Below, one piece after another: positions 7,885 to 40,357 of a DNA stretch of 64,000 nucleotides. The stretch comes from Natrinema salsiterrestre (lineage in GTDB: Archaea; Halobacteriota; Halobacteria; Halobacteriales; Natrialbaceae): NCBI RefSeq assembly GCF_029502005.1, contig NZ_JAMQOT010000004.1, forward strand, positions 1 to 64,000, written 5' to 3'. The notes below the pieces were generated by a model that searched no databases, was not told the DNA's origin, and saw only the letters and a program-made list of their open reading frames with translations. How positions within the stretch are numbered: the stretch's first letter is position 1; each line of letters opens with the position of its first letter. The translations under genes were made by a program, and so were the position numbers.

Positions 7885-8412
7885 CTAATATAGCCCGTTA
7901 CGGATCTTCTTTTCAGCGACTCCGTAGCCGTCCGCGGGTACTAGGTCCCACTTTGATGGGGTGTACCCAAGGAGTTGACGAATCTCAGATTGTGGAACCC
8001 CGGTCCGAAGCAGGCGCGTTGTGAACGTCGACCGAAGTGTTTGAGAATGGACGTTATCGGAGAGACTGTCTTCACTGACTGATTTGACTCGTTTTGTCAC
8101 CGTTGAGGGGGTGATCGCAACCTCACTTCGCGTTCTGAAGAAGTCCTCGAACCGTTCGACCCCGTCTTCGGACAGCGGAATCGACCTCACTCGAGACCTT
8201 ATGCCCTTAACTGCATCTGCCGGGACTTGGAGCATTTGCTTTTCGCTATCGAGCCATTCACAGCTCAAGCGACTGAACTCACTACCGCGCAGTCCAGTGT
8301 GGCCGAGCGCGTACACGGTGAATCCGTGTCGGTTCGACCTCTCTTCTGCGGCCTTGAGCAGCTTGTTGTACTTCGATGGTGACAGCGGTGCGGGCTCTTT
8401 ACTCATCCTCAC
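7885..8412 (-). CDS. Tyrosine recombinase catalytic-domain protein (short, probably a fragment)
   Basis: 175 aa, only the catalytic half of a phage-type integrase: HTGLRGSEFSRL (first Arg), HSQTLRSTFTTRLL (box II, with H-SQTL-R spacing rather than H-x-L-R), LLGYTPSK, and a candidate nucleophile Tyr in VPADGYGVAEKK. The N-terminal SAM-like/core-binding domain is absent, so this is either a truncated integrase or a regulator derived from one. It overlaps the end of the upstream gene at 8399 by 14 bp, so the two are translated as a pair. The altered box II spacing argues for lost or reduced activity. Confidence 0.65.
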   Translation of the reverse strand: MRMSKEPAPLSPSKYNKLLKAAEERSNRHGFTVYALGHTGLRGSEFSRLSCEWLDSEKQMLQVPADAVKGIRSRVRSIPLSEDGVERFEDFFRTRSEVAITPSTVTKRVKSVSEDSLSDNVHSQTLRSTFTTRLLRTGVPQSEIRQLLGYTPSKWDLVPADGYGVAEKKIRNGLY

Positions 8413-9430: not shown

Positions 9431-10738
9431 ATGACGTATTGTGTTGAACCATATGTTCAGGATCTCGTGTGGCTCTGGCTGGAAAATAATCCCGCCTATA
9501 CACAAGTAGGAGGCGAAGTCAGTATCGGGTCTGGTATCCATTCTGGGCGTATCGACCTTGTCGCGAAGACAGCCGATGGAGAGTATCATGGGTTCGAAAT
9601 TAAAAATAACGCGTTCGCTGATGAACAGCTTAATCGGTATCTGAATTCAGAATATCTAGATAAGCTCTTTCACTGCTCTAGGGTTGGTGAGTCTGTTGCC
9701 GACCGGTTAGCTAATAAAAAGAAGGTAGGCGGCGGAACCTACACGAATCAGCAGATACGGAAGCAGGTGAGTAATGCGATTGCAGCCGGCCAATATACGG
9801 AAGCGGACTATCTAGAGGCACTTGACGGACATTTTCCGGACGACGTTCTTGAGCAATCGGTCTCAGTTTATCAGACGAACGAGCGTATTCTCGATGATGA
9901 ACAGAAGACGGTCCGTGCACGATTAGAACGGAATCTCGGGATTCCAACGGCGGATTTCGACCCATCTGAGACATACATCGATCTGGAGGAGGCAATCAAA
10001 CGAATGCAAAATAACCTCCTGTTGCCTGATCAGACCGGTGTGGTCGACGTCCCTCTTGAGCTGGAAAGCACTGATGAGCAAGATGGATTCCGGCAACCTC
10101 TCCCAAATGCCACAGACGACGCCTTTTCCCAACAGAAATGGACTGCTGTAGAAGTGATTCGTGAGGGATCTTCTCTCCCCCGCGAACACACACCAACACT
10201 CTCCTGCGACAACGAAACGTGGGTACAGCATCATGTGTGGCGGGCATACGGTCATATTCGCGAGGCTGTCGTTCCTAGTCAGCAAGATAACGCCGAATAC
10301 CTCATCGATGTAATGGGCTTTGAAGATGGGAAAGCACCTGCGAAAATCTATCAAGAAGATAACAGCAAAAAATTGATCGGAGTCGAAGCAAAGGGAGATT
10401 CAACGGTGGCGACGACGGAGCAGATTGAGGAGATTCGGGCCCAGTTAGAACGGTACCAGTCAAGTGGGGTGATTACACACCTCTATCTGGCGGTTCCGCA
10501 GCAATATCAGGCGAACGGCGAACAAGTCCTTGCAGTTGACTCACTTTCAAAAGTCGGACTAATGACGGTTTCTCGTTCTGGAGAAGTGACAATCACACGT
10601 GAAGCCATGCGGTCGGAGATGGAGTTCGATGGGTACATCAAACGATCTGGCTCGAATGAGTATCCCCGGTCGATCGGATTCGGGAACTTGCGACCACGGG
10701 ACGAACCGGAACACGTCGCCCCCTGCCGTGTCGGCTAA
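9431..10738 (+). CDS. Protein with two PD-(D/E)XK nuclease-like motifs (putative defence nuclease)
   Basis: 435 aa from the ATG at 9431 (MTYCVEPYVQ); an upstream extension to 9275 is rejected as antisense to the decayed gene. Motif set 1: Glu29, Asp42 (GRIDLVAK) and Glu56-Ile-Lys58 (GFEIKNN). Motif set 2: Asp293 (EYLIDVMGF) and Glu319-Ala-Lys321 (GVEAKGD), followed by a helix (TTEQIEEIRAQLERYQSSG) and a strand (THLYLAVPQQY), as in restriction-endonuclease-like folds. Between them lies a mostly helical linker. Both motif sets look intact, so the protein may have two active sites or one active and one regulatory fold. It ends 6 bp from the convergent 10745 gene and is followed by the giant helicase. 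A DNA-targeting role is inferred. Confidence 0.75.
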   Translation: MTYCVEPYVQDLVWLWLENNPAYTQVGGEVSIGSGIHSGRIDLVAKTADGEYHGFEIKNNAFADEQLNRYLNSEYLDKLFHCSRVGESVADRLANKKKVGGGTYTNQQIRKQVSNAIAAGQYTEADYLEALDGHFPDDVLEQSVSVYQTNERILDDEQKTVRARLERNLGIPTADFDPSETYIDLEEAIKRMQNNLLLPDQTGVVDVPLELESTDEQDGFRQPLPNATDDAFSQQKWTAVEVIREGSSLPREHTPTLSCDNETWVQHHVWRAYGHIREAVVPSQQDNAEYLIDVMGFEDGKAPAKIYQEDNSKKLIGVEAKGDSTVATTEQIEEIRAQLERYQSSGVITHLYLAVPQQYQANGEQVLAVDSLSKVGLMTVSRSGEVTITREAMRSEMEFDGYIKRSGSNEYPRSIGFGNLRPRDEPEHVAPCRVG

Positions 10739-10744
10739 GAACTC

Positions 10745-11374
10745 TCAGAGGGTCGTCTCAAGGAGATCCCCTGTCGGCGAAATATACCCTAGGAGTTCGT
10801 CGTCGCCACCGTAGGTATCGGTCACCTTGAACGCGGGATCACCTTGGTATGTAACACCCTCAACGCCAATATTTACTGCGCGACCGACCTCACTGTGGTC
10901 ACGGATGTCTGTCGTCTGGAAGCGTCCCGCATCCATCGCATCCTCGACATCGTAGCAGTAAATCGTTTTGTCAGATAGCCGCCAAAATGCCACATAGTTG
11001 CCATTGGGTGTAAAAGACGGTCTGCGTGCGACCTCGACAACACGTTGTAGCACTGTTTCGCCTTCCCAGGTCACTAGATTGAAAATTTTCTCTTGATGCT
11101 CGCCTGTATGGTATGCGATGTACCCCGTCTCACTCACTTCGATAGACCGGTTTAGTGGAGAGAGGACTTGTACGTATTCATCGATCGTAAATGAGAGTTC
11201 ACCATCAACAAAGACTGCGACTACATTTTCACCGGTCGTTGCCGCGACGGTACACTTGCCCACCTGAATTGTTTCGGCCCACTCTGTACTTCCATCTGGA
11301 AAAATCAATTCTTCCGTTCCGATGTCTGTCTCACGCAATTCAAATTCGTCTGAACTGTTATTTCCTGTCTCCAT
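10745..11374 (-). CDS. Hypothetical beta-rich (propeller-like) protein in the nuclease/helicase cluster
   Basis: 209 aa, acidic, soluble. Repeated blade-like units can be seen: VAVFVDGELSFTIDEYVQVL, GYIAYHTGEHQEKIFNLVTW, YVAFWRLSDKTIYCYDV, and a C-terminal DELLGYISPTGDLLETTL. The pattern is that of a small WD/propeller-type beta protein, too short for a full seven-blade ring. No catalytic residues are evident. It is convergent with the double-motif nuclease gene (6 bp) and divergent from the helicase gene across 158 bp, so it sits physically inside the putative system, as a sensor or scaffold if it belongs there. Confidence 0.6.
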   Translation of the reverse strand: METGNNSSDEFELRETDIGTEELIFPDGSTEWAETIQVGKCTVAATTGENVVAVFVDGELSFTIDEYVQVLSPLNRSIEVSETGYIAYHTGEHQEKIFNLVTWEGETVLQRVVEVARRPSFTPNGNYVAFWRLSDKTIYCYDVEDAMDAGRFQTTDIRDHSEVGRAVNIGVEGVTYQGDPAFKVTDTYGGDDELLGYISPTGDLLETTL

Positions 11375-11532: not shown

Positions 11533-14500
11533 ATGGCAGGACTGGTCGAGTACGATTACGATTTCTTCGAAGATTATCAGTCCAAAGTTCTCTCCGATCT
11601 ACCATCTATCGAACAGCTGATTCGCCTTGATGATGAGGTTGCGAACAAGGTCACGATGGCCCGATACGAAGGGCCAGTTGATCCGATCGAATGGAATGAC
11701 CTTGAACGATACTACAGTGATCTCTTTGCAGATTTTGTTACGGAACGTATCCAGGGGGTAGTTGACACTGAGCCTATCGAGACGAACCGGGATCGGTTTC
11801 ACACGTTTCGCCGCCATGTCGCCTCACTGAATAAGAATCTACCTGCTCAACGGACAGCACAAACGAGCGTCATCTCAAAGCCCGCAGAAACCGTCTTGCT
11901 CAAGCGATTACGACAGCTGGGATTTGACCCAAGTGCACTCGACATCACGCATATCGGCCGTGGTGGTGGCCTCTATCTTTTGGAACTCTTCGTGACAGCT
12001 GCTCAGCAGCAGGCACTCTCGGATACAGAGTTACTCACCGCATTGTTGGAGGAGGCCTCGTCGTTGGGTAGCTTAGGACGGGAGGAAGCGATGGCCCGCC
12101 TTCACAACCCTGTCCTGATGGTTTCTCTCTGGGATAATCAGCAGGCAGGGCTAGACAACTGGCTCACAAACGGACGTCACGGCATTCTCGAGATGGCGAC
12201 AGCAACCGGGAAGACTGTCGCTGGAATTGCAGCTATCGCCGAGTGCTGTGGAGTTCTTCCTAACGACCCTAACCACTCTCCACGAACAACAGATGCGAAT
12301 ATCATGGTAGTGGCGCACTCAAACGCCATTCTGAAGCAGTGGGAGCGAGAGATTCAGGAGAAGCTTGGTCTTCCGATGCCTGCAGGAAAGACGGGTGACA
12401 AAGCCGACCGACTCTCGTTCAATGGTGGAGAAGTCGAGTTTTACACCGCTCAGTCGCTCCTACCGAGGTACGACCGCGATCTCGAAAATAAATACGATCT
12501 CGTCATTTACGACGAAGTCCACCACTACTCGAATATCGACGGTTACGGAGCCGCAATCGATAGACCGAACTACGAATCCGCAATGGGTCTTTCTGCCACC
12601 ATCGGCGACGAGGGTGGACTGAAGCGGGAACAGCTTACCGAACTCTTAGGGGACGTCGTGTACACCTACGGGGTCGAAGACGCCCGCCGTGATGGCATCA
12701 TTCCCGACTTCGACTGGACTGTCCATCCAACACCACTCGACCCGTACGAGCGTGAGGAGTGGGAAGAGACCACTGAGTCGATCTCTGATCAATTCAAACA
12801 CATTCGTCGGTCCTCGGAAACCGAGCGAATCCTAAAGCGAATACCTGTTCCATTCACCGAACTCGAAGACTTAGGCGACTTCATTCGTGCCCACGAAGCC
12901 GCCTCGATGGCTCTCGACGACGACCAGATTCCGGACGACTGGTCGAACCTCCAGGCAACGATTCACTCGCGTACGTGGATTCGCCACCGCTCACAGCCGA
13001 AGATCGAGGGAGCCATCGAACTGGCAGAGGAGTATCTCTCGGATCCAGACCAGCCTGTCAAGGTCGTCATCTTCGCGATGGACATCGACACGGCTGACCG
13101 AATCGCCGACACTCTGAGTGACGTCACAGATAACGTCTACCGGGCACACAGCCAGCTTGAGAGCTCCTCCCGGAAGAACAACGAGCGAGTTCAGCAAAAC
13201 ATCGACGCGTTCGCAAACTGCGACAACGGTGTGTTGGTGTCACCGAAGATGCTCGACGAAGGTATTGACGTTCCCGACGCTGAGGTCGGGATCAACGTCG
13301 CTGGTACCAAGACGAAACTCCAACTCGTCCAGCGGATGGGACGGGTTCTGCGGAAGCACGGCGACCAGCGACCCCATTTCCACCACTTCATCGCAGTCCC
13401 TGACGAGAACTACATCGCAGGACTCGACTCCAAAGAGTATGTTCAGGAGCTTAACTGGGTTCGTGAACTCGGCGAAACGATCGGGGTCCAGCCTGTTATC
13501 GAGGAAGCAGGAGTGGACGCCGACCTCCTCGAGCGCGCAAAGCAGCGGGGACACGAACTGTGGGCTCGTGACCTTCTTGACGACCTTGAAATCGAAACAG
13601 TCCAGGGGAACGTTCATCTTGACCAGCTGCTCGAAGAGCTGACCGCCGAGGCAATCGAAATCCTCCTCGATGAACTCTGGCTTGGTGGAGAGTATGTTGC
13701 ACAGGATGACTGGGAGACTGCGATGGACCGGCTTCGGGATGACGAAGCACTCACTGTGGAAGGTCTCCAGCGCGTCTGGTGGCTCTTCCCTCTCTACCGG
13801 GAACGCCCGGAGGAACTGGAGGATCTGTTAACCGCATCATTTGAGGCTCTTTCAGAAGAGGACGTTCCCACGACTAGGAAAGGGAGAGACTCTGACAACT
13901 CAGACCAAGAGTCGACTAATGCTGATGACGGTCGCGTAGAGACGTCTTCTACCGAAAGAGACAATCAATCGAGCAGTTCCGAGGACGAAGGTCAACCGCG
14001 GGTATCGGGGGAACCCACGGAAGCGGGAGATTCAGAGTCGTCTAATGAGAAGTCGACATCGGCGACAAAGGCTGCTGAGCTTCAGGTGCCCGTTCCCCAG
14101 AGTGTGGACATCCTCGAAGAATTCGGTGTACAAAAATCGGCTATTGAATTAGACGCCAACCGAATCACCCAGGATGCTCAGCAGTCGGTTGACGATGAAC
14201 TGCTTACTGGGATCGGAAGTGGAGGACTGCTTTCCTCTGGATACCTCTACCAGCGCTCGCTTGCGACCTATCTTTATGAAGATGAGCAACCACAGTATTT
14301 GCTCGCATCTGAGGACCGTTCACCTGCCCTCTATATCTCAACCGATCTCGAACGATCGTTACCTAATTTAGACGGGTATCAGGCCATCACGGCGATTACA
14401 CCAACACGTGCACTCTGTGTCGTTGGGAGTGAACCTGAGAATGTCCCTGTACAGCTCCGCTATGAGGACCTCACGAAAGTCGAGATCGAGCAGAGTGGCC

Positions 14501-16257
14501 AGCTGTTCTGGAAAAAGTCCTCTCTCGTGCTTCGGACAGATGATCAGCGACTCACCATCCCGGACGAGACCGGAACTGATCTCAAGGCGGTCGCAGAGTA
14601 CATTTGCGCAGCGGCCTATCAACAGAAGCACGCTGCTGGACTCCGACTCCTGGATGCATGTAACTCGGTCCTCGCGACTGGTGAAGTCGATCGGCTCGGT
14701 TCGGTGCTGGAGATGGCTCGAGAGCAGTTGCAGTACGCGATTCACTGGGGGAATTCACACGACCTCGACACAGAGAGTTCACGCAGAGCACTCGAGTTGG
14801 TAGATACTTGTGTCGGGCAGTTCGACACTAAGCGTGACGTCCTCCGGTTATGGGGTGAGGTTCAACGAATACTGGTCGATGCTCGCCTGACGTCCCTCGA
14901 CAACGATGATCGCCTCGAGGAACTGTGCACAACCGCGCAGACGAAACTCGACAAACTGCTTTCGGGCAGTGTTCGGGGGAGCCAGTACCTTCAGACAGAA
15001 GCAACGCGCTTGCAGAATAGTCTTGAGGTGGCACTCCCGAGTGATGAGGATTCGAACACCGATACGGCAGAGGACGAGACGTCAGAACCGCCAGAGGGCT
15101 CGTCTAAGAGTAGTGAACGCAAACCGAAGCGACAACGGTTGCTCGACGAACTTCAGGCTCTCACAGAGGAACTTGGTGCGGTACCGAAGGCGCCCGAAAT
15201 GGACGAACAGGGAACGTACTCGACCCATGAGTATTATCAGACGTTTGGATCGTGGGACGACGCACTCGATGCAGCTGGACTTGACAAGAGAGCAGCTCTC
15301 ATCGACGAATTAGAACGAGTAGCGACAGAACTGGGTGAGATTCCCTCGACGACGCAAGTCGACGAGCACGGTCGATACAGTTCCGGTATGTACTCGAACG
15401 AGTTTGGGACCTTCACCGAAGCACGGGATGTCGCTAACTTTGAATTCCTCGAGGAAGAGCCGTCGAGAGAGGGAGAGAGCCAAAGCGAAACGGAACAAGA
15501 TGAAGACAGGGCAACCGAAAATCCAGACGCTGAACCGGCACGTGAGGCGCTAATTGCAGAGATTCAACGCCTAGACCGATCGACAGAGGAATTGCTACCG
15601 TACGCTTCTGAGATGGATTCTCGAGGAGAGTTCACTGCATACGGCTGTCAGCGTGAATTCGGCTCGTGGGACGACGCACTCGATGCTGCCGGTATCGATA
15701 AGCGGGAGCGACTGCTTGAGGAGCTTCGGCGTGTACGTGACGAGGTGGAACGAATCCCCAAAACGACAGACATGGATAACCATGGCCGAGTTTCAGCGTC
15801 TATGTATTCGAATTTCTTCGGTTCCTGGACCGAAGCGACCTCACTCATCGAAGATGCCACACTATCGGCTTCTGGAAAGGGAGATTCTACCACAACCTCA
15901 GAGGGAGATACACTGGATGAGAATGACGAAGATGTACTGACTTGGGAAGACATCCCCGGGAACAGCCGCCTTCCGGGACCCATCCCGATTCAGATTGTAG
16001 AAAAGCGTACCGCGCGGTCCGACCGCGTCGATGGCCGCTACCTAGTTCGAGACTTAGCTGGGACAGAGTTCGAACTCAAGGTCTGGGCTAAACACGGAAT
16101 CACGGTCGACTGGGAGCCGGGATGCTGGTACGTACTCTCTGAGGCACGGGGAACGGTCTGGGAAAGCGATGGGGAAGTCAACCGAATGCTCGACAGCACC
16201 CGAGACTTAGAGACTGTCGAGTGTCTGTCTCGACCAACAAAACAGGATCTACTGTAG
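11533..16257 (+). CDS. Large SF2 helicase with PH-like domain and four homing-endonuclease-associated repeats
   Basis: 1,574 aa. An N-terminal unknown region (1-200) precedes RecA domain 1 with Walker A ATATGKT (222-228), DEVH (327-330) and GLSAT (352-356); RecA domain 2 has LVSPKMLDEGIDVPDAE and motif VI QRMGRVLR (600-607). An acidic disordered linker (about 770-860) follows, then a PH-like beta domain (about 893-1030; LRYEDLTKVEIE), helices, and four repeats of the type LLDELQALTEELG ... YSTHEYYQTFGSWDDALDAAG (about 1203-1250, 1255-1301, 1337-1390, 1393-1440), matching homing-endonuclease-associated repeats that bind DNA. An OB-like C-terminus (about 1465-1565) closes it. Helicase plus DNA-binding repeats suggest a DNA-translocating defence effector or sensor; this is inferred. 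Confidence 0.85.
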   Translation: MAGLVEYDYDFFEDYQSKVLSDLPSIEQLIRLDDEVANKVTMARYEGPVDPIEWNDLERYYSDLFADFVTERIQGVVDTEPIETNRDRFHTFRRHVASLNKNLPAQRTAQTSVISKPAETVLLKRLRQLGFDPSALDITHIGRGGGLYLLELFVTAAQQQALSDTELLTALLEEASSLGSLGREEAMARLHNPVLMVSLWDNQQAGLDNWLTNGRHGILEMATATGKTVAGIAAIAECCGVLPNDPNHSPRTTDANIMVVAHSNAILKQWEREIQEKLGLPMPAGKTGDKADRLSFNGGEVEFYTAQSLLPRYDRDLENKYDLVIYDEVHHYSNIDGYGAAIDRPNYESAMGLSATIGDEGGLKREQLTELLGDVVYTYGVEDARRDGIIPDFDWTVHPTPLDPYEREEWEETTESISDQFKHIRRSSETERILKRIPVPFTELEDLGDFIRAHEAASMALDDDQIPDDWSNLQATIHSRTWIRHRSQPKIEGAIELAEEYLSDPDQPVKVVIFAMDIDTADRIADTLSDVTDNVYRAHSQLESSSRKNNERVQQNIDAFANCDNGVLVSPKMLDEGIDVPDAEVGINVAGTKTKLQLVQRMGRVLRKHGDQRPHFHHFIAVPDENYIAGLDSKEYVQELNWVRELGETIGVQPVIEEAGVDADLLERAKQRGHELWARDLLDDLEIETVQGNVHLDQLLEELTAEAIEILLDELWLGGEYVAQDDWETAMDRLRDDEALTVEGLQRVWWLFPLYRERPEELEDLLTASFEALSEEDVPTTRKGRDSDNSDQESTNADDGRVETSSTERDNQSSSSEDEGQPRVSGEPTEAGDSESSNEKSTSATKAAELQVPVPQSVDILEEFGVQKSAIELDANRITQDAQQSVDDELLTGIGSGGLLSSGYLYQRSLATYLYEDEQPQYLLASEDRSPALYISTDLERSLPNLDGYQAITAITPTRALCVVGSEPENVPVQLRYEDLTKVEIEQSGQLFWKKSSLVLRTDDQRLTIPDETGTDLKAVAEYICAAAYQQKHAAGLRLLDACNSVLATGEVDRLGSVLEMAREQLQYAIHWGNSHDLDTESSRRALELVDTCVGQFDTKRDVLRLWGEVQRILVDARLTSLDNDDRLEELCTTAQTKLDKLLSGSVRGSQYLQTEATRLQNSLEVALPSDEDSNTDTAEDETSEPPEGSSKSSERKPKRQRLLDELQALTEELGAVPKAPEMDEQGTYSTHEYYQTFGSWDDALDAAGLDKRAALIDELERVATELGEIPSTTQVDEHGRYSSGMYSNEFGTFTEARDVANFEFLEEEPSREGESQSETEQDEDRATENPDAEPAREALIAEIQRLDRSTEELLPYASEMDSRGEFTAYGCQREFGSWDDALDAAGIDKRERLLEELRRVRDEVERIPKTTDMDNHGRVSASMYSNFFGSWTEATSLIEDATLSASGKGDSTTTSEGDTLDENDEDVLTWEDIPGNSRLPGPIPIQIVEKRTARSDRVDGRYLVRDLAGTEFELKVWAKHGITVDWEPGCWYVLSEARGTVWESDGEVNRMLDSTRDLETVECLSRPTKQDLL

Positions 16258-16335: not shown

Positions 16336-17379
16336 TTACAACCACGATAGGCCAGTATTGAGTTCTTCGAGGAACGACGGCCGTATTTGGACGTCGGATG
16401 GAAACGCAAGTTGTTCTCCTTGCCGTTCAAGGATAGTTTCGCGAAGAAAAGGGTGGGCAGGGTCGAACGAAGGACTTGTTCGGATCCGATAGTCGCTGTC
16501 GATGGTAAACAGTGCGGCGTCGAACGCGCGGTGGTGCAGCGAATTCAGTACGAGGACGTTCTCAGGGTGTTCAGCGAGATCGGGGTGTTGACTTCGGGGG
16601 AGGATATGCGCTAGGTCCAAAAGATCACTCTCTTGAATGCCGGTCATCGTGCATGCGTGGCCATATCGATTGAACATGTCTTCACGGAAAGCGTCGCTTA
16701 CGACGGTTTCGGACCTTTCGTACCGTCGAACCTGTCCGCTCTGATCGAGAGTCTCGCCGGTCGGCCACTGAGAGACCTCACCAGTCTCAACCCAGTGTGT
16801 CCAGACGTCCGGAGCACGACCGTCATCGTTCATTCGGGCGCGATCGTGTAGCCACGAAACGGGGACAGACTGCGTATTGAGAATGGAGAAGTGGAAGAGG
16901 TAATTCGGGATCTGTGTGCCGGTATCGTCTTGGTAGGAGCGAACCTCGAAGTGTTCGGGGACACACAGCCCACAGAACTCGACGACGCCGGACTCCGGTT
17001 TGCGAAAGATGAAAACGGGCGGGACATCCTCCCGTCGACCGGACGCTGTTCGGTCGAACGCGGTCTTGATCTTCTTGTTCTTCGCAGACTCGTCGTACGG
17101 ATTGGTGGCTTTGGCGTCACCCCAGTAGCTGATGTATCCGGCGTTGACAGCGAGCGTATCTTCCCAGGGGTCGTCGTGCTGGGAAATGCCGCTATCGTTC
17201 GACACGAGGACGAGCGCCGCAGGCGTGTCGGATCGATCGGCGCCGAGGGTACGAATACCGCCTGTGTTCTTGATGCCGCTGTCGAGCGGGCCGCGGATCC
17301 ACCGCAGGAACTGGTCGTCAGAGTTCCGAAAGCTACCGGTGTCCCGGTACCGTTCGCCGACCCGGAACCTGTGGTTCAT
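16336..17379 (-). CDS. HNH_2-type endonuclease with N-terminal DNA-recognition-like domain
   Basis: 347 aa. C-terminal HNH: HACTMTGIQESDLLDLAHILPRS (first His about residue 258) then PENVLVLNSLHHRAFDAALF, matching the HNH_2 (PF13391-type) pattern. The N-terminal 200 residues contain GERYRDTG, WIRGPLDSG, VNAGYISYWGDAK and CVPEHFEVRSYQDD, a beta-rich arrangement reminiscent of SRA-like or modified-base-binding domains of type IV restriction enzymes, though I cannot confirm this. It is convergent with the helicase gene (78 bp apart). A paralogue sharing the HNH and the tail (PFLRETILERQGEQL) is at 23433-24392. A modification-dependent restriction enzyme is the leading hypothesis. Confidence 0.78.
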   Translation of the reverse strand: MNHRFRVGERYRDTGSFRNSDDQFLRWIRGPLDSGIKNTGGIRTLGADRSDTPAALVLVSNDSGISQHDDPWEDTLAVNAGYISYWGDAKATNPYDESAKNKKIKTAFDRTASGRREDVPPVFIFRKPESGVVEFCGLCVPEHFEVRSYQDDTGTQIPNYLFHFSILNTQSVPVSWLHDRARMNDDGRAPDVWTHWVETGEVSQWPTGETLDQSGQVRRYERSETVVSDAFREDMFNRYGHACTMTGIQESDLLDLAHILPRSQHPDLAEHPENVLVLNSLHHRAFDAALFTIDSDYRIRTSPSFDPAHPFLRETILERQGEQLAFPSDVQIRPSFLEELNTGLSWL

Positions 17380-20995: not shown

Positions 20996-22009
20996 TTAGA
21001 GCCGATCCAGGTAGTCGCGGCGCTGTTCCATCTTTTCTTTCTCGGTACGCCGATCGTAGTGCTGTTCGATGACCGCGGGGCTCACGTTTGCCCGGTCACT
21101 CACGACATTGTCCGGAAGATCACTGTTAAGCGAGTGCGTGATGCTGCCTCGCCGGATCGCGTGGGGGTTGACGTTCGCGGGACACCTGAACGCCTCTTGG
21201 TCGTTGACAGCAGCCTCACACTCTTCTGGGTCCCGATCCTCGGGGCATTCTGCCCCACGGAAGCACGGCCGGGTCGCCTGGTAGACGTACTTCCGAAGTG
21301 TAGTCTTGTTTGCGCGGCCCTCCCGCGTCGCGACGAGCGGTTCACGGCCGAAGTCGTCAGTCACGTTCGGTCGCTTCTCTTCGATCCAGTCGTCGAGCAG
21401 CATGCAGATGTCATCCGACAGCGCGACCAGGCGCTCGCCGTCTTTCTTGTTCTTGATTGGCGTGTCAGTATCCGGGCGGTGGTGAACCTCGATGTACTGC
21501 TCGCCGGGATTGTAGTCGTCGACGTCGAGAGCGTTGACGCTGCTGACACGCATCATCGTGTGCCACATCAGCGCGACGGTGACGTGTTCACGGGATGCGT
21601 AGTCGTACTTGGCGAGGTACGAGAGAACCGCTTCGGCTTCCTCGGTCTCCAGCATCTCGTCGCGGGTGTTTTGCTCTGGCGTCATCGACGGCGAACGGAC
21701 CTTCGTCGAGAGGTCCTGTTCGACGGCGTCGATCGACTCGGCCCAGCGGATGAACACGCGCAGCGTGTCCATTTGGGTCTTCTCGCTGGCGACGGAGAGG
21801 TCACCGTCGTCGCGCCGCCAGAGGCGGTACTGTTGGATTTTGCGCCCGGTGAGGTCGTTGAGGTTGTCGATGTCCTCCATCTCACACCAGCGCAGGAAGT
21901 GCTTGAGGCGGTACCTGTGCGACTGAATCGAACTCTCGGCGAGTTCGGCTTCCTTGTCCGTGAGGTACAGCTCGAGTGCTGTCTCCGGATCGATTGGCTC
22001 GAGACTCAT
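20996..22009 (-). CDS. Tyrosine site-specific integrase of the island
   Basis: 337 aa from the ATG at 22007-22009 (MSLEPIDPETAL); upstream codons to 22225 run through the att site and are rejected. The N-terminal SAM-like/core-binding domain (about 1-110) precedes a catalytic domain with Arg in MWHTMMRVSSVNAL, box II His/Arg in NPHAIRRGSITHSL, and nucleophile Tyr in IEQHYDRRTEKEK. A cysteine-containing insert (CFRGAECPEDRDPEECEAA) is typical of haloarchaeal integrases and may bind zinc. It lies 210 bp from a 3'-tRNA fragment, so it is very likely the enzyme that inserted this island. Confidence 0.88.
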   Translation of the reverse strand: MSLEPIDPETALELYLTDKEAELAESSIQSHRYRLKHFLRWCEMEDIDNLNDLTGRKIQQYRLWRRDDGDLSVASEKTQMDTLRVFIRWAESIDAVEQDLSTKVRSPSMTPEQNTRDEMLETEEAEAVLSYLAKYDYASREHVTVALMWHTMMRVSSVNALDVDDYNPGEQYIEVHHRPDTDTPIKNKKDGERLVALSDDICMLLDDWIEEKRPNVTDDFGREPLVATREGRANKTTLRKYVYQATRPCFRGAECPEDRDPEECEAAVNDQEAFRCPANVNPHAIRRGSITHSLNSDLPDNVVSDRANVSPAVIEQHYDRRTEKEKMEQRRDYLDRL

Positions 22010-22218
22010 AGTCGTGAGTCGCGAACCGATAACGGGTCGATCTGAACTCCGGGATTTCCCTCCGTTCGTCAGACTGAACGAGAGGAATCCTGAGGGCGTC
22101 TGAGGCCCTGTGAGCCTGCAGCGCCCATGTTTCTGTCGCGAACGAATTCGTGAGCGGCAGATACCGGATCGCGAAGGATTTGCGGTAGACGGCGGCAAAC
22201 GAAGCGAGCCGACGGCGT

Positions 22219-22240
22219 GGTTCAAATCCCGTCGCGCCCA
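22219..22240 (+). other. att site: 3' tRNA fragment (T-loop to acceptor end)
   Basis: GGTTCAAATCCC followed by GTCGCGCCCA reproduces the T-loop, T-stem 3' strand and 3' acceptor strand of a tRNA. No matching 5' acceptor strand (GGGCGCG) or anticodon arm lies upstream, and the 5' side of the T-stem is already mismatched, so this is a fragment rather than a gene. Such 22-base 3'-tRNA duplications mark the distal end of tRNA-integrated elements; the intact tRNA should lie beyond the left edge of the window. Confidence 0.7.
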
Positions 22241-23432: not shown

Positions 23433-24392
23433 ATGCCCGTACAGGCGATCAATGATTGGCTCGCGCTCCTCGAGCAAGAGGCTCAAGAGCGCAATATCTC
23501 TGTGGATACTGATATTGATGGCCGTATTTTCCATTTTCATCTCGGCGACGATCCCGGAATCATCGGAAAGGTACGCTATTCCGAGAAAAAAGAGCGGAAC
23601 TACGAAAACGAACAGGGCCTGACCCATATCTGGCATCGATACAATCGGGAAAAGGATCGAATTCGGGACGGGTCCGAACGCAACGTCGTAAACGTCACTC
23701 TCGATATCTGGGAGAAGGACGAGTTTGACCCAAAAGATCATCATTTCATCTTCTTGACTGAACAAATGATCGCCGAGGATACCTACTCGAAAGGTGACCA
23801 GAAAATCCACATTCTAGATGACGGGAAATACAAAGGACCGTTATCGAAATATGTCGATGATTGGGATTCTATATTCGAGTATGCAGCGGGAGAAGCATCT
23901 CCAACACCGACCACGACCTCCGAAGGTGAAATCGACACGCAGTCCCAGGAAACCGATGGCGATGTCTCGGCTCCAGATGATCTCTCTGGAACCGTGCGTG
24001 AAGACACACAAACGCAGGTACGTGTTAGTGAAGAATTCAAGCGAGCAGCCTACGACCAGTTCGAGAATCAGTGCGTACTCACTGGGATTGAACGGCAGGA
24101 ACTGCTGACGGTGTCTCATGTACTCGACCGCGCTACCAATCCGGAGATCGCTCAAGACATCGAAAACGTGCTGATTCTCGATTGGACACATCACACCGCC
24201 TTCGATGCCGGTCTGTGGACGTTCGATGAACTCGGCCGGATCTGGATCAAGCCCCAATTTGATACTGAAAGTCCGTTCCTCAGAAGCTCACTGATCGATA
24301 GACACGGCGAGAAAATAGATGCTCTCACCGACGTGGGCGAGGAGTACATCGAACAACACAATGACGAACTTCAGTGGTGGCCACCGAGATAA
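23433..24392 (+). CDS. HNH_2 endonuclease, paralogue of the island HNH protein
   Basis: 319 aa. The N-terminal half (DIDGRIFHFHLGDDPG, RYSEKKERNYENEQG) is beta-rich and unrelated by eye to the 16336-17379 N-terminus. A polar linker (about 150-195) leads to the HNH: FENQCVLTGIERQELLTVSHVLDR and IENVLILDWTHHTAFDAGLW, then SPFLRSSLIDRHGEK. In the second half the paralogue's VLNSLHHR is VLDWTHHT, so the usual Asn is an Asp here, which some HNH families tolerate. AT-rich upstream region and codons indicate transfer. Probably a restriction-type nuclease. Confidence 0.78.
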   Translation: MPVQAINDWLALLEQEAQERNISVDTDIDGRIFHFHLGDDPGIIGKVRYSEKKERNYENEQGLTHIWHRYNREKDRIRDGSERNVVNVTLDIWEKDEFDPKDHHFIFLTEQMIAEDTYSKGDQKIHILDDGKYKGPLSKYVDDWDSIFEYAAGEASPTPTTTSEGEIDTQSQETDGDVSAPDDLSGTVREDTQTQVRVSEEFKRAAYDQFENQCVLTGIERQELLTVSHVLDRATNPEIAQDIENVLILDWTHHTAFDAGLWTFDELGRIWIKPQFDTESPFLRSSLIDRHGEKIDALTDVGEEYIEQHNDELQWWPPR

Positions 24393-29637: not shown

Positions 29638-31869
29638 CTACTGCCGTCGGTCCGTCGCCGCGGTCTCGGCGGCGGTTCGAACCGTCTCGACCGACAGCGA
29701 CGAGAGGTCGACCAGTTCGCCGTCGGTTTCGCTCGCGACCAGTTCCGAGAGCCCCGCCCGGGAGTCGTCGCCGGCGTCGACCACCACCACTCGAGCGCCA
29801 CTCGCGGCGAGCGCTCGTGCCGCGGTTCGCGTCGCCTCGGTCGGACTCCCGTCGGCGACGTTCGCGCGGCCGTCGGTGACGAGAAGGACGACCGATGCGT
29901 CCGCGTCCGCACGCTCGAGGACCCGGCGGGAGGTCTCGAGGCCGGCCGGTAACGGCGTCCGGTCGCCGGAGGGCAGGTCCTTGAGGTGGCGGGCGGCCAG
30001 CGAGACGCTGTCGGTCGGCGGGAGCAGGACGTCTGCGTCCTCGCCGGCGAAGGCGACGAAGGAGACCTGATCGCGGTGCTCGTAGCTATCGCGCAGGAGT
30101 TCGAGCACGACGCCTTTGGCTGTCCGCATCGCCGGGCGCATCGAGGCGCTGGCGTCGACGGCGAAGACGATCGTCACCGAGGTGTCGCCGGTGCGGACGG
30201 ACTGCCGGAGGTCCCGGTCTTCGACCCGCGATTCGCCGCGAGACGCGGCCGATCGCACGGACGCGGCGGCGTCGATCGACCCGTCGCCGGACGCGGGTTC
30301 GGTGCGGACGCGAGCGCCTCGGTTGTCCGTGCTCGGTGCCGTGTTCGCTCGCGTTCCCGTCGCGCTCGCGCTCTCGGTCGTTTCGGCGGTCGGCGTCTCG
30401 AGGTCCGGTGCCCGCGCTTCGCCGACGCCGGCCCGCTGCTGGCCGGGAACCAGCGGCTGGGCGGTTTCGTCTTCCCCGTCGTCGTCGGGTGACTCGTCCG
30501 ACTCGGAGTCCCGCTCGTTCGAATCGCCGTCGGAACCCCCGTCACCGGCGTCAGCGGGTTGCCGGTTCGGCGATGTCGGTCGGTCGCCGTCCTCCGGCTG
30601 CCGGCCACCTTCGGTATCGTCGCCATCGGGTTCGGAGCCGTCGCCGCTCGAGTCGCCACCGTCCCCACCGTCGTTCCCACCGGAACCGTCTTGGTCGCTG
30701 CCCTCCCGATCGTCGTCCTCACGCTGACTTCCGTCCTCGGCGTCGTCACTCGAGTCATCGGCCTCGTTCCCGTCGCCCCCGTCAGCCGCGTCGCTTCCGT
30801 CGGTGTCGTTTCCCTCGCCGTCGTCAGGCGACTCCTCGTCGAATCGGTCCTCGAGCAGGTCGTCGAGATCCGGTTCGTCCTCGAAGGGCGTGCTCCGGAG
30901 GCGGTGAGGAAGCGCGTACGTCGCGGCCTCGTGAATATCGGACTCGATGACGGTCTCCCGGCCCTCGAGCGCGGCCAGGGTCATGGCGGTTCGAGCCGTC
31001 GCCACGTCGCCGCGGTGGCCGTCGACGCCGGCCTCGAGGCAGAGTTCGGCGATCTCGGCTTTGAAATCGCTCGGGAGGTCGACGGTCGGGAGGCGGTCGC
31101 GGGCCGCGGCGAGGTCGTCGCGAAGGGTCTCGACCTCGTCGCCGTACTTCACAGACGGGGCCGTTCCGTCGCCACTGTCGACCGCGAGCGCCCGGTCGAT
31201 GATCTCGACCCGATCGTCGATCTCCCGACAGCCCTCGACGGTGGCTTGCAGGGCGAAGCGGTCCCGAAGCTGGGGACGCAAGTCGCCCTCTTCGGGGTTC
31301 ATCGTCCCGATCAGGGTGAAGTTCGCGGGATGAGAGACGCTGATACCGTCTCGTTCCACGGTGTTGACGCCGCTGGCGGCGGCGTCGAGAATCACGTCGA
31401 CGAGGTGGTCGTCCAGCAGGTTGACCTCGTCCACGTAGAGAATGCCGCGGTTCGCACGGGCCAGCAGGCCGGGATCGAAATCTGCCTCGCCCGCCAGCGC
31501 GTCCTCGACCGAGAGGGTGCCGACGACCCGATCTCGAGTCGCGCCCAGCGGCAGGGTGACGAGCGGGACGGGTCGGGTCTCGATCGGCATTTCGCCGGGG
31601 TCCCGGCGGCGGCAGTCCTCGCACTGCTGGCTCGAGTCGTCGGGCGAACAGCCGTACGGACAGTCCGCGACGAACCGTTGCTCGGGGAGGAGATCGACCA
31701 GTGCCCGAACGGCGGTCGACTTCGCGGTCCCCTTCTCGCCGACGATGAGGGAGCCGTCGAGGCCGTCGTTTGCGGCGACGGCGAGCAGCACGCGCTTCAA
31801 CTCGTCCTGTCCGACGATCGCCGGAAAGGGGAGTGACGACAGCTTTTTGTCCTCGGACTCTGCAACCAT
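29638..31869 (-). CDS. chlID: ChlI/ChlD fusion: AAA+ and VWA subunit of a cobalto/magnesium chelatase
   Basis: 743 aa. The AAA+ part has Walker A GEKGTAKS (44-51), a Cys-rich insertion (CPYGCSPDDSSQQCEDC) that could hold zinc, Walker B ILYVDEVNLLDD, and GTMNPEEGDLRPQLRDRF. A very acidic, Gly/Asp/Ser-rich linker (about 340-510) separates it from a VWA domain with MIDAS motif FAVDASASM (about residue 550) and LLVTDGRAN. It powers metal insertion by the CobN large subunit and diverges from cobN over 34 bp, so it is the BchI/BchD-like partner of CobN in late cobalt insertion. Length and linker are normal for haloarchaeal versions. Confidence 0.88.
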   Translation of the reverse strand: MVAESEDKKLSSLPFPAIVGQDELKRVLLAVAANDGLDGSLIVGEKGTAKSTAVRALVDLLPEQRFVADCPYGCSPDDSSQQCEDCRRRDPGEMPIETRPVPLVTLPLGATRDRVVGTLSVEDALAGEADFDPGLLARANRGILYVDEVNLLDDHLVDVILDAAASGVNTVERDGISVSHPANFTLIGTMNPEEGDLRPQLRDRFALQATVEGCREIDDRVEIIDRALAVDSGDGTAPSVKYGDEVETLRDDLAAARDRLPTVDLPSDFKAEIAELCLEAGVDGHRGDVATARTAMTLAALEGRETVIESDIHEAATYALPHRLRSTPFEDEPDLDDLLEDRFDEESPDDGEGNDTDGSDAADGGDGNEADDSSDDAEDGSQREDDDREGSDQDGSGGNDGGDGGDSSGDGSEPDGDDTEGGRQPEDGDRPTSPNRQPADAGDGGSDGDSNERDSESDESPDDDGEDETAQPLVPGQQRAGVGEARAPDLETPTAETTESASATGTRANTAPSTDNRGARVRTEPASGDGSIDAAASVRSAASRGESRVEDRDLRQSVRTGDTSVTIVFAVDASASMRPAMRTAKGVVLELLRDSYEHRDQVSFVAFAGEDADVLLPPTDSVSLAARHLKDLPSGDRTPLPAGLETSRRVLERADADASVVLLVTDGRANVADGSPTEATRTAARALAASGARVVVVDAGDDSRAGLSELVASETDGELVDLSSLSVETVRTAAETAATDRRQ

Positions 31870-31903
31870 ACTTGAGCTAATACAATAGAGGTTTAAAAAC
31901 TCG
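31870..31903. promoter_or_regulatory. Shared divergent promoter of chlID and cobN
   Basis: Only 34 bp separate the two start codons, so both transcripts must be leaderless or nearly so. GTTTAAAAAC (31891-31900), an inverted repeat of GTTT/AAAC, lies about 26 bp upstream of the chlID ATG and can serve as its TATA element; AGCTAATACA, about 26 bp upstream of the cobN ATG, is the counterpart. The overlap means the two genes are probably controlled together. Confidence 0.5.
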
Positions 31904-34900
31904 ATGACAACGATTGGGATCTATACTGCGACGGAGAACGAACTCGGCTCGATCGGCCGGGCCGCCACGCGTCTCGAGGACGTCGAGCTGGTCGTCCGTT
32001 CGGAGAGCGACCTCGAGGACGAGGCCGACGTCGAGGAGTTCGTCGAGGAATTGCACGACGCCGCGGCGGCGATCTTCTGGCTGCACGGGGCCGAAGACAG
32101 CATGCCCGGCTACGACTACGCGACGGGCGCGCTCGAGGAGGCGGGCGTCCCCCTGATCGTCAAAGCGACCGGCGACGCCTTCGCGTTCGAGGACACGACG
32201 GTCTCGGACGGGCATCGAGACCTCGTCTACGACTACCTCGAGAAGGGCGGCACGATCAACGTCGCGAACCTGTGTCGCTTCCTCGCCGCCGAGTACGAGG
32301 GTCGGGACCTCGAATACGACGAGCCGACCGAACTCCCAACGGAGGGCGTCTACCACCCCGATCATCCGGGAATCGAGTACGAAGACCTGCTCGAGACCCA
32401 CGATCCGACCAAACCGACGGTCGCGGTCTGGTTCTACGAATCGCACTGGACACACGAGAACACCCGCTACGTCGACGCGCAGGTCCGGGCGCTCGAGGAA
32501 CAGGGGGCGAACGCCCTGCCGATCTTCTGTAACCCGGCGACGGACACCGACGAGCAGGAAGACGCGGAGTGGGTGACGGACAACTGGCTGCTCGACGCGG
32601 ACGGGAATTCGATCGTCGACGCCGTGCTCTCCTCGTTCATGTTCTCTCTCTCGATGGACGAGCGCGGCCGCAGCGCCAGCGACGAAGGCAGCGGTGCGGA
32701 GGACGTCTTCCTCGATCGGCTCGGCGTTCCGGTCCTGCAGACGGTTACGACGATGCGCTCGCGGTCGCGCTACGAGTCCAGCGACACGGGCGTAATGGGC
32801 TTCGAGCTCGCCCTCTCCGTGGCGCTGCCGGAGTTCGACGGCAACGTCATCACGCACCCGATTTCCGGCAAGGAGCGCACCGACGACGAGGCCGGCATCG
32901 GCTCCGCGCCGAAACACCACTTCCCGATCGAGGACCGGATCGACCACGCGACCCGACTGGCGGTCAACTGGGCGCAACTGCGCCACACCCCGAACGAGGA
33001 CAAGCAGGTCGCCGTGGTCCTCCACAACTACCCGCCGAGCGACGACGGGATCGGGACCGCGTTCGGGCTCGACTCGCCGGAGTCGACGGTCAATCTGCTC
33101 GAGGAACTCGACGCCCGCGGCTACGACCTCGGCGACGACATGCCCGATAGCGGGCAGTCGCTCGTCGAGAAATTGACCGCACAGCTCACGCTCGAGGACC
33201 GGTGGGTCGCCCCGGAGGACGTTCGCGACCTCTCGGTCGACGTGGTCTCCTCGGACACGTACGAAGAGTGGTTCAGCGATACTGACGAGCGCTTTCAGGA
33301 GAATATCGTCGAGGAATGGGGCGAGGTACCGGACCGCCCGTTCGCGATCCCGGGCGTCGAGTTCGGCAACGTGCTCGTCACCGTCCAGCCCCCGCGCGGG
33401 TTCGGGATGGACCCCTCGAAGGTCTACCACGACTCGAACCTCCAGCCGCCCCACGACTACTTCGCCTTCTACGGCTGGCTGCGCAACAGCTTCGAGACCG
33501 ACGCGGTCGTCCACCTGGGCACCCACGGCAGCCTCGAGTGGCTCCCCGGCAAGACCGTCGGGCTCAACGGCGAGAGCGCGCCCGACCAGCTGATCGACGA
33601 TATCCCGAACGTCTACCCCTACATCGTCAACAACCCCGGCGAAGGGACGCAGGCCAAGCGGCGCTCGTATGCGGCGATCGTCGACTACCTGACGCCCGTC
33701 ATGCGGAACGCGGGCACGTACGACGAGCTGTCGGAACTCGAGGAGCTCGCCAACCAGTACCGCGAGGCCGGGATGGAGGACGCCCGGAGCGACGACGGCG
33801 AACATCTCGAGGCCCTCATGCGGGAGAAAGTCGAGGAACTCGACCTCGCCGTCGAGCTCGGTATCAGTGGTACGATCGACGAGAAAGCCGACGTTCGCGG
33901 TCCCGACGAGGCCGGCTCGAGCCTCGCGGAGGGCGATGTCGAGGGCGAGGAAGTCGATGTCGACGAACTGGTCGAACGGGTCCACGAGTACCTCACGGAC
34001 GTGAAGACGACCCAGATCCGGCTCGGCCTGCACACCATGTCCGAGCCACCGGAGGGCGAGCGCCTGACCGAGTATCTGGTCGCGCTCACCCGGCTCGAGA
34101 ACCCCGGCGCGCCGAGCCTGCGCGAGAGCGTCGCCGGCGCGCTGGGCGTCGACTACCAGACGATGCTCGACTCGCCCGGCGAGTACGCCGAGGACCTCGG
34201 CATGACCTACGCCGAGGCCGCAGATATCGTCTACGAGACCAGCGTCGAACTGATCGAGACGCTCGCGGAACACGACTTCGACATCCCGGTCTCGGGGCGT
34301 GAAGCCGATCCAGGGGACGAAGTGAACGTTAACCTCCTCATCGTCGATCTCGAGACGATCGGCGACGGGCGCGCGAAATCCGGTGCGCACAACGATCTTC
34401 GGGAGGCTCTGGCCTACATCTGCGAGGAGGCCCAGCCCCGCGTCCAGGGGGCCGAAGACGAGATTCCCCGAACCGCCGACGCCCTTTCGGGCGAGTACGT
34501 GCCGCCGGGCGGCTCCGGCGCGCCGACCCGCGGCGGCGTCGACCTGCTGCCCACGGCCCGCAATTTCTACACGCTCGATCCGCGCAAGGTGCCGGCGAAG
34601 GCCGCCTGGCAGGTCGGGAGCGAGGTCGCAGAGGGCGTCCTCGAGCGCCACCACAGCGAAAACGACGAGTACCCCGAGGAGATCGGCGTGGTCGCCTGGG
34701 GGACGCCGACCGTGCGCACCCGCGGCGAGACGATCGCCCAGGTGCTCGCGATGATGGGCGTCGAACCGCAGTGGACCGACGCCGGACGGATCGACGACGT
34801 CGAACCGATCCCGCTCGAGGAGCTCGACCGGCCCCGAATCGACGTGACGACCCGCGTCTCGGGGCTGTTCCGCGACGCCTTCCCCGCCGCGGCGGGCGTC

Positions 34901-35800
34901 ATCCACGACGCCGTGGATGCGGTCGTCGACCTCGACGAGCCTCACGAGATGAACTACGTGAAAAAACACGTCGAGGAGGAGCAGGCCGAACTCGAGGCGG
35001 AAGAGGGTCTCGACGAATCAGATGCGCGAAAAGCGGCGAAACATCGCGTCTTCACGACTCGGCCCGGCGGCTACGGTGCCGGGACGAACAAGGCCGTCGA
35101 CGAGGGCAACTGGGACGACCGCGCCGATCTGGCCGAGGTGTACGTCCAGTGGGGCGGCTACGCCATGGGGTCGAGAGGCCGCGTCTCGGACGCCCACGAC
35201 GCGTTCGAACGCCGCCTCTCGAGCGTCGACGCGACGGTCAAGATCGAGGACACGATGGAGCAAGACGAGTTCGACTCCTCGGACTGGTACGCCTTCCACG
35301 GGGGCTTCATCTCCGCCGTGAGCGAGATTTCAGGCGAAGAGCCGGCCTCCTACGTCGGCGACTCCTCGGACCCCGACAACGTCGACGTCTACACGAACGA
35401 GGAGAAGGTCCGCAAGGCGATGCGCTCACGCGTGCTGAATCCGGACTGGCTCGAGTCCATGGAGGACCACGGCTACAAGGGCGCGGGCGACCTCTCGACG
35501 ACGGTCGACGTGACGCTGGGCTGGGACGCGACCACCGGGGTCGTCTCGGACACGCTGTGGGAGGAGGTCGCCGAGAAGTTCGCCTTCGACGAGGATCGAC
35601 AAGACTGGATGCGCGACGTCAATCCGTGGGCGCTCGAGTCCATCACGGACACCCTGCTCGAGGCGATCGAACGGGACCTGTGGGACGCCGACGACGAGAC
35701 GATCGACCGACTGCGCGATCTCAATCTCGAGGTCGAGGGCGACCTCGAGGCGCGGACGACCAACGAGGGCGTCGGCGCGGAGGTGTCGACGGATGACTGA
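31904..35800 (+). CDS. cobN: Cobaltochelatase large subunit CobN
   Basis: 1,298 aa, the usual size of CobN/ChlH proteins. Recognisable segments are VWFYESHWTHENTRYVDAQV, PVLQTVTTMRSRSRYESSD, VHLGTHGSLEWLPGKTVGL (about residue 537, a core chelatase motif), GRNF-type region LLPTARNFYTLDPRKVPAKAA and FTTRPGGYGAGTNKAVDEGN. It binds the corrin or hydrogenobyrinate substrate and inserts cobalt with ATP hydrolysis by the ChlI/ChlD-type partner encoded divergently. cbiC follows through a short bridging frame. An insertion with acidic repeats (about 640-690) looks like halophilic adaptation. Confidence 0.92.
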   Translation: MTTIGIYTATENELGSIGRAATRLEDVELVVRSESDLEDEADVEEFVEELHDAAAAIFWLHGAEDSMPGYDYATGALEEAGVPLIVKATGDAFAFEDTTVSDGHRDLVYDYLEKGGTINVANLCRFLAAEYEGRDLEYDEPTELPTEGVYHPDHPGIEYEDLLETHDPTKPTVAVWFYESHWTHENTRYVDAQVRALEEQGANALPIFCNPATDTDEQEDAEWVTDNWLLDADGNSIVDAVLSSFMFSLSMDERGRSASDEGSGAEDVFLDRLGVPVLQTVTTMRSRSRYESSDTGVMGFELALSVALPEFDGNVITHPISGKERTDDEAGIGSAPKHHFPIEDRIDHATRLAVNWAQLRHTPNEDKQVAVVLHNYPPSDDGIGTAFGLDSPESTVNLLEELDARGYDLGDDMPDSGQSLVEKLTAQLTLEDRWVAPEDVRDLSVDVVSSDTYEEWFSDTDERFQENIVEEWGEVPDRPFAIPGVEFGNVLVTVQPPRGFGMDPSKVYHDSNLQPPHDYFAFYGWLRNSFETDAVVHLGTHGSLEWLPGKTVGLNGESAPDQLIDDIPNVYPYIVNNPGEGTQAKRRSYAAIVDYLTPVMRNAGTYDELSELEELANQYREAGMEDARSDDGEHLEALMREKVEELDLAVELGISGTIDEKADVRGPDEAGSSLAEGDVEGEEVDVDELVERVHEYLTDVKTTQIRLGLHTMSEPPEGERLTEYLVALTRLENPGAPSLRESVAGALGVDYQTMLDSPGEYAEDLGMTYAEAADIVYETSVELIETLAEHDFDIPVSGREADPGDEVNVNLLIVDLETIGDGRAKSGAHNDLREALAYICEEAQPRVQGAEDEIPRTADALSGEYVPPGGSGAPTRGGVDLLPTARNFYTLDPRKVPAKAAWQVGSEVAEGVLERHHSENDEYPEEIGVVAWGTPTVRTRGETIAQVLAMMGVEPQWTDAGRIDDVEPIPLEELDRPRIDVTTRVSGLFRDAFPAAAGVIHDAVDAVVDLDEPHEMNYVKKHVEEEQAELEAEEGLDESDARKAAKHRVFTTRPGGYGAGTNKAVDEGNWDDRADLAEVYVQWGGYAMGSRGRVSDAHDAFERRLSSVDATVKIEDTMEQDEFDSSDWYAFHGGFISAVSEISGEEPASYVGDSSDPDNVDVYTNEEKVRKAMRSRVLNPDWLESMEDHGYKGAGDLSTTVDVTLGWDATTGVVSDTLWEEVAEKFAFDEDRQDWMRDVNPWALESITDTLLEAIERDLWDADDETIDRLRDLNLEVEGDLEARTTNEGVGAEVSTDD

Positions 35801-37392: not shown

Positions 37393-37490
37393 TGGTCACT
37401 GCGACAACCGGTGAGCGGTCACGGTTGTATCGCGGTTCTCCCGCCACGGTTCGAGACGACGGGCCCGGTTCTCGAGCGCCGGGGCGGTCG

Positions 37491-40333: not shown

Positions 40334-40357
40334 TAGGGCCGGACTCTGTTCCAACGG

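What the first reader, a model, noticed from the sequence alone, without database searches (positions are those of the whole stretch)
9431..10738. One protein with two complete PD-(D/E)XK signatures
Both halves show the D...ExK pattern (Asp42/Glu56-x-Lys58 and Asp293/Glu319-x-Lys321) with surrounding strand/helix order. A tandem arrangement could cut both strands as a monomer or pair a sensor domain with a nuclease. Whether the two halves are homologous to each other is not visible by eye.
Basis: partly seen in the sequence, partly recalled or inferred. Interest (0 to 1): 0.6.

Follow-up and report, generated by a model that had tools for sequence, protein, structure and literature searches.

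The report
Two-active-site tandem nuclease in haloarchaea
This gene, carried on a foreign-looking island of a salt-loving archaeon, encodes an unnamed protein built from two related DNA-cutting domains that both keep a complete active site, so one molecule could probably cut both DNA strands, most likely as a defence against invading DNA.

Summary
The 435-aa ORF (9431-10738, +) carries Asp42/Glu56-x-Lys58 and Asp293/Glu319-x-Lys321 exactly as stated. The bare pattern is common by chance (65% of shuffles have two or more). However, all six residues are invariant in 14 relatives that share only about 30% identity. AlphaFold2 gives both halves the alpha-beta-beta-beta-alpha-beta core of restriction-endonuclease folds. 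Domain 1 alone matches MmcB-like, XisH, PaqCI and EndoMS/NucS structures (Z 8-12.6); domain 2 matches XisH, AF1548 and EndoMS (Z 7-9). Half-versus-half profile alignment puts Asp, ExK, Gln and Tyr in register (98%, P about 1e-15). Both domains are under purifying selection. I find no degenerate 'sensor' copy, which argues against a Sau3AI-type layout. The family has no Pfam, NCBIfam, PHROG or PADLOC model. It occurs sporadically in haloarchaea, mostly on plasmids or islands beside defence genes (Hachiman, SIR2-HerA, pAgo, modification-directed restriction). Best reading: an internally duplicated defence nuclease that cuts both strands as a pseudo-dimer. The fold and sites are well supported; the cutting mode and the defence role are inferred.

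The parts
9431..10738 (+). Complete gene for the tandem PD-(D/E)XK-type protein (435 aa)
   Evidence: start supported by alignment; GC3 0.50 against 0.85 for a core gene
9431..9721 (+). Domain 1, first part (residues 1-97): alpha-beta-beta-beta-alpha-beta core
   Evidence: AlphaFold2 models; PDB matches Z 8-12.6; profile alignment to domain 2
9554..9604 (+). Active site 1: Asp42 (9554-9556), Glu56 (9596-9598), Lys58 (9602-9604)
   Evidence: Invariant in 14 of 14 relatives
9722..10021 (+). Mostly helical insertion in domain 1 (residues 98-197), nearly absent in the short relative L035
   Evidence: no profile similarity to either domain
10022..10180 (+). Domain 1, closing strands (residues 198-250); GVVDVP aligns with GLMTVS of domain 2
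   Evidence: hhalign with the insertion removed; DSSP strands 203-206, 209-211, 241-244
10193..10684 (+). Domain 2 (residues 255-418): second nuclease-fold core
   Evidence: PDB matches XisH 8.9, AF1548 7.3, EndoMS 6.7
10307..10393 (+). Active site 2: Asp293 (10307-10309), Glu319 (10385-10387), Lys321 (10391-10393)
   Evidence: Invariant in 14 of 14 relatives
10442..10456 (+). Gln338...Tyr342 of domain 2, equivalent to Gln66...Tyr70 (9626-9640) of domain 1; RecB/Cas4-like Q..Y motif (motif name from general knowledge)
   Evidence: In register in hhalign; Gln338 14/14, Gln66 13/14

Best explanation
The gene encodes a metal-dependent endonuclease made by internal duplication of one MmcB/NucS-like PD-(D/E)XK domain. 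Each copy keeps a full active site (D, ExK, Q). I infer that the two copies act as a built-in pseudo-dimer, each cutting one strand of the same DNA, so that one polypeptide makes a double-strand break. I further infer that it serves as a defence factor against plasmids or viruses, without an adjacent cognate methyltransferase. Shown: sequence, fold prediction, homology of the halves, conservation and purifying selection at both sites, mobile/defence setting. Inferred: catalysis, strand division, target and activation.
For: Both halves have the restriction-endonuclease core. Domain 1 folded alone matches MmcB-like 3dnx (Z 12.6, rmsd 2.6, 114 aligned), XisH, AF1548 and EndoMS; domain 2 matches XisH, AF1548 and EndoMS. 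The halves align at P 6.9e-15, and 2.4e-16 with the insertion removed, catalytic residues in register. A profile of the family finds archaeal NucS-like proteins at E about 1e-5. Both triads are invariant in 14 of 14 and present in two further divergent tandem subfamilies (L053 and L056). dN/dS is 0.06-0.29 in both domains. It lies in a low-GC region, beside an integrase, absent from a close relative. Neighbours here: a PbeA-like helicase and an AspBHI_N-HNH modification-directed enzyme. Neighbours of relatives: Hachiman HamA/HamB, SIR2-HerA, pAgo. Copies with a stop or split exist (L004/L031, L040), as is usual for mobile defence genes.
Against: No biochemical data. No sequence-recognition domain identified. 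The defence role rests on neighbourhood only, with no statistical baseline; the neighbours differ from locus to locus. Two intact sites also fit two independent nicking activities, or a homodimer with four sites.
Confidence: 0.55

Rival explanations
1. One domain cuts and the other binds DNA or a ligand as an allosteric or sensor module, as in Sau3AI or Can1.
For: This is a common fate of duplicated PD-(D/E)XK domains: Sau3AI and COG1395 have a degenerate second copy (PMC1189080); Can1 has a nuclease-like domain without active-site residues (PMC6981274). The domains differ in detail: domain 1 has a helical insertion, domain 2 a Trp/His-rich first helix.
Against: Both D-ExK-Q sets are kept in nearly every relative down to distant ones, and both domains are under purifying selection. 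A pure sensor copy would be expected to lose catalytic residues in some lineages.
Confidence: 0.2
2. A repair or DNA-processing nuclease of plasmids and islands (NucS/MmcB-like role) rather than a defence factor, for example acting on mismatches, branched DNA or replication intermediates of the element that carries it.
For: Closest folds are MmcB-like and EndoMS/NucS; found on several plasmids; a bacterial contig and a euryarchaeal AN1-finger fusion lie outside obvious defence islands.
Against: Sporadic distribution (15 of 391 class genomes), a variable island here, and repeated proximity to defence systems.
Confidence: 0.2
3. It is a subunit of a multi-gene system, activated by a neighbouring protein, rather than a stand-alone enzyme.
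For: A divergent gene lies next to it in most long-form relatives: a beta-propeller-like protein in L021, L022, L023, L026, L030, L032, a phrog_13083 protein in L024, L025, L027, L028, L036-L038. A weakly beta-propeller-like gene follows it convergently in the window (10745-11374).
Against: The partner is not the same gene across subfamilies, is divergent rather than co-transcribed, and the window neighbour is not a detectable homologue and occurs elsewhere without the nuclease.
Confidence: 0.2

Closest known systems
Single-chain Type IIT/IIS restriction enzymes with two catalytic domains (Mva1269I, BsrI, BtsCI)
   Same: Two different intact catalytic domains in one chain, each cutting one strand in the known enzymes (PMC4081073)
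   Different: Mva1269I combines EcoRI-like and FokI-like domains; here both copies are homologous and MmcB/NucS-like. No recognised target-recognition domain and no methyltransferase found nearby
Sau3AI
   Same: Tandemly duplicated PD-(D/E)XK domains in one chain (PMC1189080)
   Different: Its second copy is degenerate; here both sites are invariant
COG1395 (PAB2104 family)
   Same: Archaeal protein with two PD-(D/E)XK domains (PMC1189080)
   Different: It has an HTH between the domains and a C-terminal domain without an active site; neither feature is seen here
Can1 (CRISPR ancillary nuclease 1)
   Same: Monomer with two nuclease-fold domains, used in defence (PMC6981274)
   Different: Can1 has two CARF domains and only one active nuclease domain; no CARF domain was seen here
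EndoMS/NucS, MmcB-like and XisH proteins
   Same: Same single-domain fold; NucS-like proteins found by the family profile
   Different: They carry one nuclease domain per chain; the Pfam NucS_C and MmcB-like models score below their cut-offs

Membership tests
PD-(D/E)XK nuclease superfamily | alpha-beta-beta-beta-alpha-beta core | tested here: met
   Both halves of the model; PDB matches for each domain
PD-(D/E)XK nuclease superfamily | Asp and (D/E)xK on adjacent core strands | tested here: met
   Present and invariant in both halves; positions on strands 39-47/52-57 and 289-297/315-320; distances not measured
PD-(D/E)XK nuclease superfamily | Metal-dependent phosphodiester cleavage | not testable with these tools
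   Needs purified protein
EndoMS/NucS | Reaches the curated NucS_C / NucS model cut-off | tested here: not met
   NucS_C 13.1 bits against 24 for a relative; NCBIfam NucS 14 against 252 for the window protein
MmcB-like (PF06319) | Reaches the Pfam gathering score | tested here: not met
   15.8 bits against 22 in the best relative; not listed for the window protein
Type IIT/IIS single-chain restriction enzymes | Two intact catalytic domains in one polypeptide | tested here: met
Type IIT/IIS single-chain restriction enzymes | Sequence-specific cleavage near an asymmetric site | not testable with these tools
   Needs cleavage assays
Type IIT/IIS single-chain restriction enzymes | Cognate DNA methyltransferase encoded nearby | tested here: inconclusive
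   None among the window ORFs scanned or annotated near eight relatives; the rest of the genome was not searched
Sau3AI-type duplicated nuclease | Second copy without active site | tested here: not met
   D293, E319, K321 invariant
COG1395 | PD-(D/E)XK - HTH - inactive PD-(D/E)XK | tested here: not met
   Second site intact; no HTH model matched in the protein
Can1/Can2 CARF nucleases | CARF domain | tested here: inconclusive
   No CARF model matched and the N-terminus is itself a nuclease fold; matches to Can2/Card1 chains mostly fall in the nuclease region
Known defence-system proteins in PADLOC-DB | Match to any model | tested here: not met
   No family for P0001 at E up to 1

The most novel reading that the evidence does not exclude
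An undescribed archaeal family of defence nucleases in which one ancestral MmcB/NucS-like domain was duplicated and both copies stayed catalytic, giving a single-chain double-strand cutter that works without a cognate methyltransferase; at least three divergent subfamilies plus an AN1-finger fusion share the layout.
Probability: 0.4. Interest if true: 0.6.

Novelty: new variant of a known kind. Interest (0 to 1): 0.48.

Why it matters
In the duplicated PD-(D/E)XK proteins described in the papers read here, either one copy decays (Sau3AI, COG1395, Can1) or the two domains are of different lineages (Mva1269I). A family whose homologous copies both remain intact down to about 30% identity is a clean natural test of whether a restriction-endonuclease-like dimer can be replaced by one chain. 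Two point mutants would show which domain cuts which strand. The family has no curated model in the four libraries searched and sits in haloarchaeal defence islands, so it is also a candidate defence gene to test.

Tried and rejected
Bare motif count as evidence: rejected, 65% of shuffles have two or more D...[DE]xK sites. Direct sequence search of PDB, Pfam, NCBIfam, PADLOC and PHROGs with the window protein: only sub-threshold hits. Relatives in viral contigs and phage genomes: none found. Single-protein scan of genome contigs: none; the alignment scan gave eight loci. The longer start at 9275: rejected. The downstream beta-propeller-like gene as a fixed partner: not supported. Foldseek against PDB gave no E below 0.001; the VIA-align ranking was used instead, with domain 1 refolded alone because whole-model matches mix the two domains. 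No Sau3AI paper came up in the library search, so Sau3AI is cited through PMC1189080.

Full report
OBSERVATION. The ORF at 9431-10738 (+) translates to 435 residues, and the six named residues are at the stated positions. Counting motifs alone would not justify the claim: the protein has four D...[DE]xK sites, and 65% of composition-preserving shuffles have at least two. Conservation does justify it. Relatives at about 30% identity were found in 15 of 391 genomes drawn from the class and in ten plasmids. The window's genus is probably Natrinema, because the same-genus genome G715 carries a copy at coordinates that coincide with those of a Natrinema zhouii plasmid. In an 11-sequence alignment, 31 columns are invariant, and all six catalytic residues are among them. 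In a 14-sequence alignment including a bacterial MAG contig (L047) and a non-haloarchaeal euryarchaeal protein (L068), D42, E56, K58, D293, E319, K321, E6, E262 and Q338 are invariant; Q66 is missing only in L068.

FOLD. AlphaFold2 on the window protein with eight relatives gives mean pLDDT 77 and pTM 0.78. Secondary structure is H5-19 E23-32 E39-47 E52-57 H63-71 E78-83 H86-95 for the first half and H262-273 E276-282 E289-297 H303-309 E315-320 H329-344 E350-356 H357-366 for the second. This is the restriction-endonuclease-like core twice, with Asp on the second core strand and ExK at the end of the third in each copy. VIA-align against PDB matches the second half to XisH (Z 8.9, rmsd 2.6, 112 aligned), AF1548 (7.3) and EndoMS (6.7). 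Domain 1 refolded alone (residues 1-255, pLDDT 69) matches MmcB-like 3dnx (Z 12.6, rmsd 2.6, 114 aligned), PaqCI (9.9), XisH (9.4), AF1548 (9.0) and EndoMS (8.1-8.3). In viral predicted structures the best match is also an MmcB-like protein. Z values under 8 on their own may mean only a common arrangement (tool note); the weight comes from the catalytic residues agreeing with the fold.

ARE THE HALVES HOMOLOGOUS? Yes. hhalign of the two half-alignments gives probability 98.4% and P 6.9e-15, with D42/D293, E56-K58/E319-K321, Q66/Q338 and Y70/Y342 in register; the middle segment matches neither half. Removing residues 98-196 and keeping 197-250 extends the match through GVVDVP = GLMTVS (P 2.4e-16). 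So domain 1 is one nuclease fold interrupted by a mostly helical insertion of about 100 residues, and domain 2 follows. The short haloarchaeal relative L035 (351 aa) nearly lacks the insertion but keeps both sites.

WIDER FAMILY. The family profile also finds two more divergent tandem proteins in haloarchaea (L053, 372 aa; L056/L061, 385 aa), each with both ExK sites, plus single-domain relatives (L054, L055) and NucS-like proteins (L058, L062; E 7e-6 and 2e-5). hhalign places the repeat twice on L053 and on L056. L068 adds an N-terminal AN1 zinc finger. Several relatives carry about 230 further C-terminal residues of unknown fold; the window protein, L029, L026, L067 and L035 are short forms. 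Close pairs have dN/dS of 0.06-0.29 in both domains.

SETTING. The gene lies in a GC-poor stretch (47-57% against 65-70% in the conserved flank) with GC3 0.50 against 0.85 for a core gene. The congeneric genome G143 aligns with the window almost continuously from about 25 kb on, only in pieces from 21.3 to 25 kb, and not at all before 21.3 kb, next to an integrase gene at 20996-22225. Nearby are a helicase resembling PbeA (E 1e-47) with four HNH_repeat modules and an AspBHI_N-HNH protein matching modification-directed restriction enzymes. Relatives sit near Hachiman HamA/HamB (L027), SIR2-HerA and pAgo (L022), and restriction or HNH genes. No methyltransferase was seen next to the gene in the loci inspected. 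This is guilt by association, without a statistical baseline. PbeABCD is itself reported to act without cleaving DNA (PMC6459918), so the neighbouring helicase is not evidence for cutting.

MECHANISM. Steps shown: two homologous PD-(D/E)XK folds, both with complete conserved sites, in a variable island. Steps inferred: metal-dependent cleavage, one strand per domain, action as an intramolecular pseudo-dimer, and use against invading DNA. Precedent for one chain using two catalytic domains for the two strands exists in Mva1269I-type enzymes (PMC4081073). Precedent for the opposite outcome, a decayed second copy, exists in Sau3AI and COG1395 (PMC1189080) and Can1 (PMC6981274). The invariance of both sites favours the first.

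NOVELTY. The fold and the tandem idea are known. Homologous copies that both stay intact, on an MmcB/NucS-like domain, in an unnamed archaeal family, make it a new variant of a known kind. No paper describing this family was found, but only an open-access library was searched.

Noticed in passing
window 11533-16257 (+): 1574-aa helicase with ResIII and Helicase_C domains, PbeA-like in PADLOC (E 1e-47) and dnd_restrict_1-like, fused to four HNH_repeat (homing-endonuclease-associated) modules; no PLD domain found.
   Followed up: partly
window 16336-17379 (-): AspBHI N-terminal (modification-recognising) domain fused to HNH_2; a related HNH_2 protein lies at 23433-24392.
   Followed up: partly
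window 20996-22225 (-): Tyrosine integrase at the point where synteny with the congeneric genome G143 begins; G143 has a 71% identical stretch there, suggesting a shared integration hot spot.
   Followed up: partly
window 7885-8412 (-): Short (175 aa) tyrosine recombinase catalytic domain without an N-terminal arm-binding domain.
   Followed up: no
window 10745-11374 (-): Small, weakly beta-propeller-like protein convergent with the nuclease gene; a 51% identical relative occurs in G111, with no tandem nuclease found within that 19-kb stretch.
   Followed up: partly
L068:8364-9833: Euryarchaeal protein with an AN1 zinc finger followed by two PD-(D/E)XK domains, both with intact ExK.
   Followed up: partly
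L053:877-1995 (-) and L056:748-1905 (-): Two further divergent haloarchaeal tandem PD-(D/E)XK proteins (372 and 385 aa open frames), each with two intact sites.
   Followed up: partly
L026:9962-11281: A member of this family is annotated 'DNA/RNA nuclease SfsA' in the public record, apparently a fold-level misnomer.
   Followed up: no
L027:8620-9780 (-) and its equivalents in L024, L025, L028, L036-L038: Divergent neighbour of the long-form nuclease that belongs to viral family phrog_13083 (E 4e-150), function unknown.
   Followed up: no
window 29638-47996: Run of genes that read as a cobalamin (vitamin B12) biosynthesis cluster in the conserved GC-rich part of the window (read from translations only).
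   Followed up: no
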